A DNA stretch of 31,324 nucleotides, from positions 1 through 31,324 of IMG/VR virus record IMGVR_UViG_3300015202_000348; one strand, written 5' to 3'. The DNA is from a virus. Under the pieces are notes generated by a model that did no database searches, was not told where the DNA came from, and saw only the letters and a list, made by a program, of their open reading frames with translations. The translations under genes and the position numbers were made by a program. Below are positions 348 to 5,947 of the stretch, piece after piece; position 1 is the first letter of the stretch; every line of letters starts with the position of its first letter.

Positions 348-1586
348 ATGCTCGTATTTGAGTTTCGCGCATACGCAAAATCAGTTCAGTTCACCGCAAT
401 CGACGATGCCATCCGCACCGTTCAATTCGTTCGCAACAAAGCGATTCGCTATTGGATGGATGGGCATGGCAAGTCGGTCTACGACCTGAATAAGTACTGT
501 GCAGTTCTCGCTAGAGAATTTCCGTTTGCCAAAAAACTCAACTCAATGGCACGTCAAGCAGCAGCCGAACGTGCTTGGGCATCAATCCAACGTTTTTACG
601 ACAACTGCAAAGGTAAGGTCGCTGGCAAAAAGGGGTTTCCCCAGTTCCAGAAAGATTGCCGCTCAGTTGAATATAAAACGTCGGGATGGGCATTAAGCGA
701 CGACCGCAAATCAATTACGTTTACCGATAAAAAAGGAATCGGCAAACTAAAACTCAAAGGTACCCGCGATCTAAACTTTTACCAGCCAGACCAAATCAAA
801 CGAGTGCGGTTGGTCAAACGTGCGGATGGCTACTACGTGCAATTTTGCATTTCTGTAGATCGTACAGAGGTGTTACCTGCTACTGGCAACACGATTGGGT
901 TAGATGTTGGACTGAAAAGTTTTTACACGGACTCGAACGGTTTAGAGGTTGAAAATCCTAAGTTTTACCGTGCTGGTGAAGTAAAAATGAAACGGGCGCA
1001 ACGTCTAGTTTCTCGTAAAGTCAAAGTGATGGGCGGGGAACCCGCCCAGTGTTCAAACAATCGCATCAAATCTCGCTGTAAGCTAGGTAAGATCCACCTT
1101 AAAATAAGTCGGCAACGTAAAGACCATGCTGTGAAATTAGCAAGGTGCGTAATCCGGTCTAACGACCTGGTAGCCTATGAAGATTTAAGAGTGAGAAACA
1201 TGGTTAAAAACCATTGTTTAGCTAAGTCGATTTCTGATGCGGGATGGTATCAATTTAGAGTTTGGTTAGAAACATTTGGTCGGATATTTGGTCGGATTAC
1301 TGTTGCAGTGAATCCCGCCTACACCAGTCAAGAATGTTCTAGCTGTGGCGTAATTGTGAAGAAGTCTCTGTCTACGCGCACTCACGCTTGTCAGTGTGGT
1401 TGTGTGTTAGACCGTGACCATAATGCCGCACTCAACATATTAACCAAAGCAATAGGCACCGCAGGGCATGTGGGAACCTCAATACTAGATATTGGAATCG
1501 CTTCTGGAGACATACTCTCTACTCTTGCTGGTGCAAACCTGCAAGAGCAAGGTGCGTCATTGAAAGAAGAATCCCCTCGCCTTTAG
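348..1586 (+). CDS. tnpB: TnpB RNA-guided nuclease (IS200/IS605 family, OrfB)
   Basis: 412 aa, a normal TnpB length. The N-terminal helical region is followed by a split RuvC nuclease: motif I IGLDVGLKSF (Asp186), motif II AYEDLRVRNM (Glu278), and motif III LDRDHNAALNIL (Asp355). A zinc ribbon lies between II and III (Cys330, Cys333, Cys348, Cys350; the second pair is the CxC variant). All catalytic acids are present, so it should be active. In known relatives, TnpB binds a non-coding omega RNA made from the 3' end of the gene plus the right end, and cuts DNA matching the flanking guide next to a short motif. The protein ends EESPRL, typical of the family, with its stop codon inside the right-end hairpin. 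ATG at 348 is chosen; upstream is AT-rich with no good Shine-Dalgarno. Orientation is opposite to the phage structural genes. Confidence 0.95.
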   Translation: MLVFEFRAYAKSVQFTAIDDAIRTVQFVRNKAIRYWMDGHGKSVYDLNKYCAVLAREFPFAKKLNSMARQAAAERAWASIQRFYDNCKGKVAGKKGFPQFQKDCRSVEYKTSGWALSDDRKSITFTDKKGIGKLKLKGTRDLNFYQPDQIKRVRLVKRADGYYVQFCISVDRTEVLPATGNTIGLDVGLKSFYTDSNGLEVENPKFYRAGEVKMKRAQRLVSRKVKVMGGEPAQCSNNRIKSRCKLGKIHLKISRQRKDHAVKLARCVIRSNDLVAYEDLRVRNMVKNHCLAKSISDAGWYQFRVWLETFGRIFGRITVAVNPAYTSQECSSCGVIVKKSLSTRTHACQCGCVLDRDHNAALNILTKAIGTAGHVGTSILDIGIASGDILSTLAGANLQEQGASLKEESPRL

Positions 1587-2404: not shown

Positions 2405-2459
2405 CTTTCCGGCGAATTTCGGTAATTAACTCTTTTAGTTTTAATCGATCGAGCATAAT

Positions 2460-2762
2460 TTAAAATCTTTTCTGTTTAAAGTAATCGTTGCGTGCCGACT
2501 TAAAGCCATTGGTACCTTTACCAAGTTGAACGCGTTTGAGATGTTCGGGAACTTGAGAGACAACTTCTACTTGGGTACTGCTGCTAGTCAGCTGCGTTCG
2601 TTCGAGTAACCAGCATAAACCGCAGACGGCATCGGAGATATCTTTTGAATTGTGTACAAAAACTCCAGCCTCTAGTCTAAAGTTGTCATTTTCAGGAACT
2701 TCAATGTCGTATACGTCAACAGGGGCTACTAGCTCAATGTGCTCAATTAGGCTTATTTTCAT
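2460..2762 (-). CDS. terminase large subunit, C-terminal part, preceded by split-intein C-fragment
   Basis: 100 aa. Residues 1-38 are an intein C-fragment: VDVYDIEVPENDNF (block F) then GVFVHN with the penultimate His and terminal Asn, and Ser as the +1 residue. Residues 39-100 are the C-extein, starting SKDISDAVCG, which is the last nuclease motif of a phage terminase large subunit (acidic residues of the KD..DA signature). Trans-splicing with the upstream ORF would join ...VKIDHPRSG to SKDISDAV..., a continuous terminase motif. ATG at 2762 lies 20 bp downstream of the endonuclease remnant; no Shine-Dalgarno is evident. Alone, this piece could have no terminase activity. Function is assigned from motifs and from the neighbouring half. 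Confidence 0.9.
   Translation of the reverse strand: MKISLIEHIELVAPVDVYDIEVPENDNFRLEAGVFVHNSKDISDAVCGLCWLLERTQLTSSSTQVEVVSQVPEHLKRVQLGKGTNGFKSARNDYFKQKRF
2649..2762 (-). other. split intein, C-terminal fragment (38 aa)
   Basis: Codons 1-38 of the ORF starting at 2762. It has block F (VYDIEVPENDNF) and block G (FVHN followed by S), the residues that carry out Asn cyclisation and transesterification in class 1 inteins. Its length is typical of the C-fragment of naturally split inteins broken at the endonuclease position. Partner: the N-fragment at 2904-3194. Confidence 0.9.
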
Positions 2763-2782
2763 TAGCTTTAATAGTATTTATT

Positions 2783-2920
2783 TTATCGAGCGTACCCATG
2801 CCTTAGATACCACTTATACTGACTAACTAATTCTAAATCTTGTGCATCTATTAAGGTAAACAAGTGACTATGATTACCATTTAGAAAAATCTTTACGGGC
2901 TCAATCTTGTAAGTCGTCAT
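2783..2920 (-). pseudogene. N-terminal remnant of an HNH-type homing endonuclease between the intein halves
   Basis: A 45-codon ORF, ATG at 2918-2920 and TAA at 2783-2785, in a different frame from both intein halves. It overlaps the end of the N-half ORF by 20 nt. Its sequence (VKIFLNGNHSHLFTLIDAQD, then LELVSQYKWYLRHGYAR) closely follows the opening of free-standing phage and bacterial HNH endonucleases, which typically read I.L..G..ALVD.ED...LSQYKW......GYA. It stops where those proteins would go on to the HNH catalytic domain, so it cannot be an active nuclease. Its position exactly at the intein break argues that an inserted endonuclease split the intein and later suffered a deletion. 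Family match is from memory, not a search. Confidence 0.6.
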
Positions 2921-4739
2921 GTTGAGTTAGGTATTGTGCTTCTTTATAAGTACCACTTTTAAGTAAAAATAAATGCTCTGGAGTACATTTTATAATTTTA
3001 CCATTTTCCAACGTAATTTTTAACAGTGATTTAGTTTGCTTAGTTACTCTAGGATTTAAGAGTGGCTTAACTTCATACTTACGAGTAGCAATATTAAAGG
3101 ATAGGCATTCAAAGCTTTTTGAAGAGGTAGCTAGTTCGCTTAGAGTTTTAATCATGCCGCCTTTTAAGACAACTTTAGTATCGCCTGTAAAGCAACCGCT
3201 GCGCGGGTGATCGATTTTAACTCCTTTAATTAATAATACCCGACAGAGTTCATCTTGCAGTTTATTGCGCCATGGACTTTGACGGGGCAGGATTAACCGC
3301 GACTCACGCATCAACTCTTTGGCAAAGGTATACTGCGCGACTTGAAGTGGGTTAGTGGCTGTATAGACGCGGGCGGAGATGCCTGCAAGATTAAGGCGCT
3401 CGACTGTTTCAGCGGAGTTATGATGATCGGCACCGAGAGCGTGGATGCGGCGAGATTTATGAACTTGTTTAATACATTCCTGGACGTGAACGATCGAGAC
3501 TTTGCGATTAGGGCTAGGTTCCCAGACTAAGACGCCATCGACGTAGTAGATAAGTTGACCATTAAAGTTAAGTTCTTTTCGACCAAAGGCAAATGTGTAG
3601 CTATCCTTGGTAATAGCGGGATCGAGATAGCCGCAGGAAAAAGATTGGGCGGGAACGACCTTCTCGATTGTCAGTGTTTCACGGTGGTCGGGATGAGCGA
3701 ATGAAGTAACGATCGCAGTATCGCCGGTAAAGCATTTAACTACCTCGTCTGATTCAAAGAATCCGACTGAGCTATTTGATCGAATGCCTTCGTACTCTAG
3801 TGCCGCTAGACGGGGGTTAGAGTTATAGGCTGAGGCAACGATTGGGTTATCACGCCCATACTTAGGGTTGAGATCCCAAGTTGCTAATCTAAAGCCAATG
3901 TAGGTAGGATCGGATTCTGCAAACTCGTAGAGCTTTTGGATTGGGTCGCCTTCAAACCAAGCCGAGGATAGAGCGAGGCGGCGGGCGTCTTTACCAAATG
4001 AGATCCCAGAAGCTCCAAGGTTAGCCCACATACTAAGAGCACTGGGGTTCTCTTCTTCTTCTGCATCACTACCTTCCATCCGCGCTACCTCGTCCATTAC
4101 CAGACAGATAATCGAGTAACCTACCTGTGAGCTAGATTTGGAGTTACCACTTTTAATAGACAGCAACTTAGACTTGTACAAGATTTCTTCAGCACCGATG
4201 ACAAGTAGCTTTTTAGAGATGAGCGGTTCAAAGTACTTAACGTATTTGAATAGCCCGCAGATCTGTGCGTAGATTGTACCCTTAGCTTGTTCAGCAGTAG
4301 TCGCGAGGATCAATAAGGTAATTGGTGTGTTGGCTCCAATCCCATAATGCTTTTGCGGTTTAGGGATATGACAGAGCTTATAAAACTCATAGGCAACAAT
4401 TACAGAAGCGAGTGCGCTTTTTGATCCACGGCGCCCGCATTCAAGAACCAAGTACTGCGCTGCGTTTGGGCTGTTTAAGTCCCATGTAGTACGCATCTGT
4501 TCGCTTAATTTTAAAGACTCTAGAAAGCTTTGCTCCTCGACTGTAAGGTTGAGTTTGTAGTAAGCTTTGAGGATAGCTCGTTGATTAAGATTAAGGTCGA
4601 TGCCCCAGGCATCCTTATCAATTTCCTTGTCGACAAAACTAATGATGTCTAAGTAATCCTCAGTCATTGCCGAGGCTTGTTGAACATCAAAGATTAGGTC
4701 TTCGAGTAATGAGGTAGTAGTGCGTGGGGTAAGTGTCAT
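2901..4739 (-). CDS. terminase large subunit, N-terminal part, fused to split-intein N-fragment
   Basis: 612 aa: residues 1-515 are terminase, 516-612 an intein N-fragment. Terminase packages phage DNA into the prohead. The ATPase shows Walker A GRRGSKS (102-108) and Walker B IICLVMDE (210-217). The nuclease begins with GYLDPAITKDSYTFAFG (Asp373) and continues with ALGADHHNSAETV (Asp438). The final nuclease motif is missing here and is supplied by the ORF at 2460-2762. Spliced length would be about 577 aa, normal for T4 gp17-like terminases. The hexapeptide CFTGDT occurs twice, at residues 336-341 and at the intein start 516-521. The start overlaps the stop of the upstream gene by one base (TAATG), implying coupling. 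Terminase at the end of the tail module, instead of ahead of portal and capsid, is unusual. Confidence 0.93.
   Translation of the reverse strand: MTLTPRTTTSLLEDLIFDVQQASAMTEDYLDIISFVDKEIDKDAWGIDLNLNQRAILKAYYKLNLTVEEQSFLESLKLSEQMRTTWDLNSPNAAQYLVLECGRRGSKSALASVIVAYEFYKLCHIPKPQKHYGIGANTPITLLILATTAEQAKGTIYAQICGLFKYVKYFEPLISKKLLVIGAEEILYKSKLLSIKSGNSKSSSQVGYSIICLVMDEVARMEGSDAEEEENPSALSMWANLGASGISFGKDARRLALSSAWFEGDPIQKLYEFAESDPTYIGFRLATWDLNPKYGRDNPIVASAYNSNPRLAALEYEGIRSNSSVGFFESDEVVKCFTGDTAIVTSFAHPDHRETLTIEKVVPAQSFSCGYLDPAITKDSYTFAFGRKELNFNGQLIYYVDGVLVWEPSPNRKVSIVHVQECIKQVHKSRRIHALGADHHNSAETVERLNLAGISARVYTATNPLQVAQYTFAKELMRESRLILPRQSPWRNKLQDELCRVLLIKGVKIDHPRSGCFTGDTKVVLKGGMIKTLSELATSSKSFECLSFNIATRKYEVKPLLNPRVTKQTKSLLKITLENGKIIKCTPEHLFLLKSGTYKEAQYLTQHDDLQD
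2904..3194 (-). other. split intein, N-terminal fragment (97 aa)
   Basis: Starts at Cys516 of the terminase ORF: block A CFTGDTKVVLKGG, then block B LENGKIIKCTPEHLFLL with the TxxH signature (TPEH). It ends at the ORF stop (2901-2903) after QHDDLQD, close to where contiguous inteins carry their endonuclease. Length and motifs match canonical N-fragments. The residue before Cys1 is Gly515. Splicing with the C-fragment at 2649-2762 would give a G-S junction. Confidence 0.92.
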
Positions 4740-5947
4740 TAGATCAGATCGACGAGAGTAAGTTGTTGAGTAAGCCGCTCGAGGTTAAAGGGACTGTAGA
4801 CGGCACAATAGACCGTAGCCTCAAGGGGAATAATCGTAGGGATTAAAAGGCTCTCGACGATACTAGTTGATGTGCTATTCAATTCGATTAGTGGTGAAAG
4901 CGGCTGTCGATTGATTCCATCGCTGGTATATTGCAGTTGAAGGAAAACATCGCGGCTAGCGTTAGGCAAAGCCCAGTGAGGATAGGTTTCCCATTTAGTA
5001 ATTCGGTAGGGTGTAACAGAAGAAAGACTAACGATTGCAATTTGAGTGGGTGGGTCAAGAGGAATAGTAGGAGCTGTAGCCTGCCATGATTGTTGAACCG
5101 TTAGGCTTGGTAGGTTAGTCCCGCCAGTAATATTAATCTGACCATAGATATATGGGGCGGTACCTGACTGGTAGAAGAGTAGGGATGGAGCGTCATACCC
5201 GACACTAAAAGTAATTAAGGAAACATTACCGCTAGAGGCAACAGTTAAATGCTCTGTGTATAGCTTAAGTCCCAGTGATGGGTTTTGTAGATCTCGTACG
5301 ATATTAAATCCGCCCGCTACGCCCACAGCTGCCGTAGATGTAAATGTATAAGTAAACCCCCTTACTAGATTAATAGTTGGGTTTGGTGCGCTATAGCTAG
5401 AGACGTGGTAGAAGCCATTTGTGTCTATGTCTACTGTAAGTGCATTCGTTGCAGCTACTGTCGGGGAAGTGACTAAAGCTAAAGATTTAATCTGCGTGTC
5501 TGTAGTTATGTAGCGAACTAAAGCACGTTCGATAAAGCCGCTGCGGATAAACCCAGATCGATCGACTGTTAAATCGAAAACTAAATTCGGTGAATTAGCT
5601 GTTGCGACTAGACCGACAATTGTAGTGTAAACATTACTAATTGAGTCTACAAAAGTGAGGCTACCCAATGTACTGGTTGTAGCTGCTCTTGAGAGTGTCA
5701 GTGTCGTTTTAGTAATTCCAACAATTGTAAGTGGAGCAATATTAGTTAGTGCCGCAAAGGGGTCGGCAGTTCCCGCAGAGACTCCAACAAAGCCAACAGA
5801 TGTAGTTAAGTTTAAAGAAGTAGCTAGAAAGTTTGTGCTTGTTGCAACTGTGTGGGCGTGTTTATTGTAGACTCGAATTAGTTCGCTTAGAGCGTCACCA
5901 GTGTAAGAGTTAGTAAAATTGACATTAAATAAGTCAGTGACAGCCAT
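4739..5947 (-). CDS. probable distal tail or fibre protein, unassigned
   Basis: 402 aa with no family I recognise. Composition is rich in Thr, Ser, Val, Ala and short beta-type runs, with many TxxVT-like alternations and few charged residues, as in phage tail fibre or baseplate-attached proteins. The N-terminal segment (LFNVNFTNSYTGDALSELIR then VYNKHAHTV) is helical and could be the attachment part. It is the last structural gene before terminase, stop and start sharing one base, and lies four nt downstream of the 649-aa gene. Position at the end of the baseplate cluster supports a receptor-side role, but this is inference from context. Confidence 0.5.
   Translation of the reverse strand: MAVTDLFNVNFTNSYTGDALSELIRVYNKHAHTVATSTNFLATSLNLTTSVGFVGVSAGTADPFAALTNIAPLTIVGITKTTLTLSRAATTSTLGSLTFVDSISNVYTTIVGLVATANSPNLVFDLTVDRSGFIRSGFIERALVRYITTDTQIKSLALVTSPTVAATNALTVDIDTNGFYHVSSYSAPNPTINLVRGFTYTFTSTAAVGVAGGFNIVRDLQNPSLGLKLYTEHLTVASSGNVSLITFSVGYDAPSLLFYQSGTAPYIYGQINITGGTNLPSLTVQQSWQATAPTIPLDPPTQIAIVSLSSVTPYRITKWETYPHWALPNASRDVFLQLQYTSDGINRQPLSPLIELNSTSTSIVESLLIPTIIPLEATVYCAVYSPFNLERLTQQLTLVDLI

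What the first reader, a model, noticed from the sequence alone, without database searches (positions are those of the whole stretch)
2763..2920. Endonuclease remnant at the fracture point of the intein
A 45-codon ORF between the intein halves matches the opening of HNH homing endonucleases (LIDAQDLELVSQYKW...GYAR) and is cut off before the catalytic domain. Its ATG overlaps the N-half stop. This looks like a late stage of the 'fractured gene' process in which a free-standing endonuclease splits an intein: the nuclease is now mostly deleted and the split kept.
Basis: partly seen in the sequence, partly recalled or inferred. Interest (0 to 1): 0.75.

Follow-up and report, generated by a model that had tools for sequence, protein, structure and literature searches.

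The report
Endonuclease stub inside split terminase intein
A phage's DNA-packaging gene is split in two by a self-splicing protein element, and between the halves lies the first 45 codons of the DNA-cutting gene that probably once spread that element; related phages still carry the whole cutter at this spot, so this is a late, decayed stage of a known kind of mobile element.

Summary
On the minus strand, TerL (terminase large subunit) is encoded as two genes ending and starting in the halves of a split intein (IntN 97 aa, IntC 38 aa, +1 Ser). Between them lies a 45-codon ORF (2783-2920) overlapping the N-half by 20 nt. Pfam and PHROGs give no hit, because their HNH models barely cover this N-terminus. 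A profile of endonucleases found between the same intein halves in other phages matches it at 32.6 bits (E about 2e-9 over 790 reading frames of the window; best of 2,000 shuffles 5.3 bits). Another has a different HNH, and one a 64-nt spacer with no gene. The closest TerL relative (57%) has an empty site. Best reading: a fractured-gene split intein that kept its split after a deletion removed the catalytic and DNA-binding parts of its free-standing homing endonuclease. New variant of a known kind. Whether the stub still does anything is untested.

The parts
3195..4739 (-). TerL N-extein (aa 1-515): ATPase and most of the RuvC-like nuclease domain, ending ...KIDHPRSG
   Evidence: (terminase phrog_17415); 57% identical to the intact TerL of L314
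2904..3194 (-). IntN, 97 aa, Cys1 CFTGDTKVV...CTPEHLFLL...AQYLTQHDDLQD; stop TGA at 2901-2903
   Evidence: Pfam Intein_splicing/Hint; block B TPEH present; same end point DxLQ(D/E)* as L010 and L082
2783..2920 (-). 45-codon ORF: truncated N-terminus of an HNH_3/AP2 free-standing homing endonuclease; overlaps IntN by 20 nt
2763..2782 (-). 20-nt gap between stub stop and C-half start; site of the missing ~180-190 endonuclease codons
2649..2762 (-). IntC, 38 aa, MKISLIEH...VYDIEVPENDNFRLEAGVFVHN
   Evidence: Pfam Intein_splicing 125-155; alignment A5
2460..2648 (-). TerL C-extein, +1 Ser, SKDISDAVCGLCWLLERT..., carries the last conserved nuclease motif
   Evidence: matches the empty-site sequence of L314

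Best explanation
The locus is a fractured-gene split intein in phage TerL, late in its homing cycle. A free-standing HNH_3/AP2 endonuclease once lay between the intein halves, in an N-half / endonuclease / C-half operon with close or overlapping ends, and presumably spread the whole cassette by cutting empty TerL alleles (inferred). In this phage a deletion removed about 180-190 codons (the HNH catalytic region and both AP2-like DNA-binding regions), leaving 45 codons that encode no nuclease. The intein halves keep all their splicing residues, so TerL is presumably rebuilt by protein trans-splicing, which preserves the split although its mobility gene is dead. Shown here: the homology, the truncation, the same architecture with full genes in relatives, the empty site in the closest TerL relative. 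Inferred: past homing activity, present trans-splicing, and neutral decay of the stub.
For: Homology of the stub: 32.6 bits, E 2e-9; 51% to L440 in the aligned part. Full HNH gene between the same halves: L355, L434, L435, L439, L440, L441, L235 up to the contig end, L010 with a frameshift before its second AP2-like region. Intein tree: 10 split inteins group together (UFBoot 88) and window + L010 are sisters (98; FastTree 0.93). The endonucleases of these split TerL inteins form one clade (0.905) that also holds L235. Empty site in L314, 57% identical TerL. TerL exteins of window and L010 are not detectably alike by tblastn at E 1e-3 although their inteins are 49% identical, which points to horizontal transfer of the intein. 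AlphaFold model of the intact relative L440: the stub covers only the first strands and helix, before the catalytic region; best PDB match is I-HmuI, weak at E 0.016.
Against: There is one copy of the window allele, so selection on the stub and an assembly deletion cannot be tested. FastTree support for the whole split clade is moderate (0.71), and L100, a contiguous mini-intein, sits beside or inside it. By raw pairwise score the best match of the stub is a free-standing HNH of Bacillus phage Staley (99), with L440 (92) and L435 (90) next, so descent from the resident endonuclease rests on position and profile score rather than on a best hit. The related phage L082 has a different HNH family at the spot, so endonucleases there can be replaced.
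Confidence: 0.88

Rival explanations
1. The stub is kept by selection: translated after the N-half (20-nt overlap) and ending 20 nt before the C-half, it hands ribosomes on to the C-half, replacing the coupling that the full endonuclease gave.
For: In 6 of 6 relatives with an intact endonuclease of this family and a visible C-half the endonuclease stop overlaps the C-half start by about 1-20 nt. The stub frame is open and it is still the ORF just upstream of the C-half.
Against: No Shine-Dalgarno-like sequence was seen by eye before either start. L024 does without any ORF (64-nt spacer) and L022 has its halves about 5.7 kb apart. An open frame of 45 codons is also expected of a recent deletion.
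Confidence: 0.15
2. The deletion is an artefact of assembly or sequencing and the real phage carries a full endonuclease.
For: A single metagenomic contig; no reads and no second copy were available (exact 25-mer search of IMG/VR: 0 hits).
Against: The 20 nt between stub and C-half hold several stop codons in the stub frame, as expected of real degraded sequence; the surrounding genes are intact.
Confidence: 0.05
3. The stub is the trace of a separate, later visit of an HNH gene to the spacer and not of the endonuclease that travelled with this intein.
For: L082, in the same intein clade, has a different HNH (phrog_3377) in the same place, and L034 a TnsA-like endonuclease. The top pairwise hit of the stub is a free-standing HNH.
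Against: The stub scores 32.6 bits with the split-intein endonucleases against 19.0 with the general HNH set, and its sister intein L010 carries the same HNH type.
Confidence: 0.08
4. A chance open reading frame with accidental HNH-like residues.
For: It is short and has no Pfam or PHROG hit.
Against: E 2e-9 with the family profile; no shuffle above 5.3 bits; it lies exactly where relatives have that gene.
Confidence: 0.005

Closest known systems
Fractured genes (Dassa et al. 2009, split inteins with a free-standing endonuclease between the halves; paper not held, cited in PMC10343443 and PMC11766414; details from own knowledge)
   Same: Essential phage gene split inside an intein, endonuclease gene between the halves
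   Different: Here the gene is TerL, the endonuclease is HNH_3/AP2, and only its first 45 codons remain
Pseudomonas jumbo phage MIJ3 PolB split intein with HNH orf154 between orf153 and orf155 (PMC6892783)
   Different: Host gene PolB; HNH gene described as present, not truncated
AceL-TerL, GOS-TerL, Cat-TerL natural split inteins (PMC11766414)
   Same: Natural split inteins of phage terminase
   Different: Atypical split (IntN 25-37 aa, IntC 104-115 aa) and +1 Cys in that review's table; here 97/38 with +1 Ser, so a different split and very likely a different site
Streptococcus phage vB_SagM-GXN1 TerL (PQ819873, L004)
   Same: Split TerL intein at the same SKD site
   Different: Nuclease-like domain fused to the N-half; not HNH
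Aeromonas phage Aeh1 nrdA-a / mobE / nrdA-b (cited in PMC3653736)
   Same: Essential gene cut in two by a free-standing endonuclease
   Different: No intein; the two subunits work without splicing

Membership tests
HNH_3/AP2 free-standing homing endonuclease | N-terminal segment ...LVDDEDxxxxxKYKWYLxxGYA | tested here: met
   32.6 bits, E 2e-9
HNH_3/AP2 free-standing homing endonuclease | HNH catalytic region (HNH_3) | tested here: not met
   Absent; the ORF ends at the position equivalent to L440 residue 41, HNH_3 lies at 75-99. Hence a remnant, not a working member
HNH_3/AP2 free-standing homing endonuclease | C-terminal AP2-like DNA-binding regions | tested here: not met
   Absent from the ORF and from the 20-nt gap; the own-genome search finds only the stub
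Split intein (Hint), trans-splicing | Cys1, block B TxxH, block F, block G His-Asn, +1 nucleophile | tested here: met
   CFTGDT, CTPEHL, VYDIEV, VHN|S
Split intein (Hint), trans-splicing | Halves on separate polypeptides, inserted in a host gene whose empty form is known | tested here: met
   Separate ORFs; L314 empty site GG|SKDIAD
Split intein (Hint), trans-splicing | Trans-splicing activity | not testable with these tools
   Needs an expression assay
Fractured gene arrangement | Endonuclease gene between the intein halves | tested here: inconclusive
   Present only as a stub here; full in L355, L434, L435, L439, L440, L441 and frameshifted in L010
Fractured gene arrangement | Homing into empty alleles | not testable with these tools
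   Inferred from intein/extein discordance only
AceL-TerL type split intein | Split after 25-37 residues, +1 Cys | tested here: not met
   97/38 split, +1 Ser (values for AceL from PMC11766414)

The most novel reading that the evidence does not exclude
The endonuclease stub has been turned into a short relay ORF that couples translation of the two terminase halves, so a selfish gene has been reduced to a regulatory spacer that now keeps the split essential gene working.
Probability: 0.12. Interest if true: 0.65.

Novelty: new variant of a known kind. Interest (0 to 1): 0.5.

Why it matters
Split inteins are thought to come from endonuclease invasion of contiguous ones, but intermediates are rarely shown. 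Here one TerL site offers a series: empty site, contiguous inteins with and without an endonuclease, split inteins with a full endonuclease, a frameshifted one, a 45-codon stub and a 64-nt spacer. It suggests that the homing cycle described for contiguous inteins and introns (PMC1654191) also runs for split ones, and that the split can outlive the endonuclease. The intact relatives give a set of untested natural split inteins and endonucleases of practical use.

Tried and rejected
Pfam and PHROGs on the 45 aa: no hit, uninformative because those models barely cover this N-terminus. Single-sequence TerL scan of IMG/VR: one unrelated helicase intein. Exact 25-mer search for a second copy of this allele: none. 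The genome collection gave three contiguous TerL inteins at SKD sites, one locus without an N-half upstream, and no HNH of this family. A second intein suspected at the CFTGDT near TerL residue 333 was rejected: the intein-free relative L314 has CWRGDSSIV there. L022 and L035 first looked like C-halves without partners: L022 has its N-half about 5.7 kb upstream; L035 has none in its record and stays unexplained.

Full report
What is there. The window is an IMG/VR virus record of 31,324 bases with tail and baseplate-type genes on the minus strand (my reading of the ORFs). Its large terminase subunit is closest among annotated phages to Microcystis and Microcoleus phages (34-35%). It is encoded in two ORFs: 4739-2901 (612 aa) and 2762-2460 (100 aa). 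The first ends in an intein N-half (Cys516 onward, 97 aa), the second starts with a 38-aa C-half ending VHN followed by Ser. Between them, overlapping the first by 20 nt and ending 20 nt before the second, lies the 45-codon ORF of the finding.

Is the resemblance real. Pfam and PHROGs return nothing for the 45 aa. That is not a refutation: in full proteins of this kind the Pfam HNH_3 match begins at residue 57-80. tblastn against phage genomes finds HNH homing endonucleases of Bacillus phages at E 8e-5. A profile made from 69 HNH proteins of IMG/VR gives 19.0 bits against 6.7 for the best of 2,000 shuffles, and the ORF is the best of 790 window segments. A profile made only from the seven endonucleases found between TerL intein halves gives 32.6 bits, E 2e-9; best shuffle 5.3 bits.

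The relatives. Scans of IMG/VR with the intein halves gave a large set of TerL inteins at the same SKD site. A uniform scan found about 76 contiguous ones and 17 in which the two halves were not in one ORF, some of these being frameshifted or incomplete. Six contigs (L355, L434, L435, L439, L440, L441) hold an intact HNH_3/AP2 gene of 222-269 aa between the halves. L235 has the N-half and an intact endonuclease, then the contig ends. L010 has the HNH gene, but its second AP2-like region is in another frame, which reads as early decay. L082 has an HNH of another family, phrog_3377. L034 has a TnsA-like endonuclease. L024 has a 64-nt spacer with no gene. L022 has its halves about 5.7 kb apart with no HNH seen between.

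History. In a tree of IntN plus IntC the split inteins with these endonucleases, the window, L082 and L022 form a group (UFBoot 88), and window and L010 are sisters (98; FastTree 0.93). Window, L010 and L082 end the N-half at the same residue, DxLQ(D/E). The endonucleases also group together (0.905). The TerL exteins do not follow: tblastn of the window extein finds nothing in L010 at E 1e-3, while L314, 57% identical to the window TerL, has an empty site. So the intein was probably acquired horizontally, and the simplest history is that it came with an HNH_3/AP2 gene that was later cut down.

What was lost. In the relatives the endonuclease stop overlaps the C-half start by about 1-20 nt; in the window 20 nt separate them and about 180-190 codons are gone. 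The predicted structure of L440 (mean pLDDT 85) places the retained part in the first strands and helix, before the catalytic region and the two AP2-like regions. The nearest solved structure is the HNH homing endonuclease I-HmuI, at a weak E of 0.016.

Mechanism. Shown: homology, truncation, same architecture with full genes in relatives, intact splicing residues. Inferred: that the ancestor homed, that TerL is now rebuilt by trans-splicing, and that the stub is decaying. The homing-cycle model (PMC1654191) predicts loss of the endonuclease after fixation. The arrangement matches the fractured genes of Dassa et al. (not held; cited in PMC11766414) and the PolB split intein of phage MIJ3 with HNH orf154 (PMC6892783).

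Limits. One copy of the allele, no reads, no close relative of the intein. Support for the split clade is moderate in one of two methods. Whether the endonuclease caused the split or entered a split intein cannot be told from these data.

Noticed in passing
window 348-1586 (+), hairpins near 1568-1590 and 2383-2405: A TnpB-like OrfB_IS605 gene lies close to the 3' end of terL, with two G+C-rich hairpins (CCCCTCGCCTTTAGGCAGGGG and CCCCAGCCTGAAGGCGTGGGG) that look like IS605-type ends. No Rfam match.
   Followed up: partly
window about 3722-3743 (-), TerL aa 333-338: The TerL extein has CFTGDT, the same hexapeptide as the intein start, with near-identical DNA. The intein-free relative L314 has CWRGDS there, so it is extein; the close match stays unexplained.
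   Followed up: yes
L022 5001 and L353 (contig IMGVR_UViG_3300001765_000001): TerL split-intein halves about 5.7 kb apart on the same strand, with several unrelated small ORFs between: a dispersed split terminase.
   Followed up: partly
L035 (IMGVR_UViG_3300042309_002578) 4974-5312: A TerL C-half whose intein N-part is missing from the whole 138-kb record; decayed intein, rearrangement or assembly error.
   Followed up: no
L082 2460-2490: The start of the HNH gene between the TerL halves sits next to an inverted repeat (CGTTATCTCC TTCT GGAGAGATAACG) that covers its likely ribosome-binding site.
   Followed up: no
L034 1386-2660: A 424-aa TnsA-like endonuclease gene lies between TerL intein halves at the same site, an endonuclease type I do not know from split inteins.
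   Followed up: partly
L004 (PQ819873) 2440-5401: Unannotated TerL of phage vB_SagM-GXN1 seems to carry two split inteins: a C-half before the ATPase motif MDE and a second intein at the SKD site with a nuclease-like domain fused to the N-half.
   Followed up: partly
L102 about 4001-4400: A contig with an intein ending just upstream of the KVDHP motif, directly followed by the SKD-site context, possibly two neighbouring TerL inteins.
   Followed up: no
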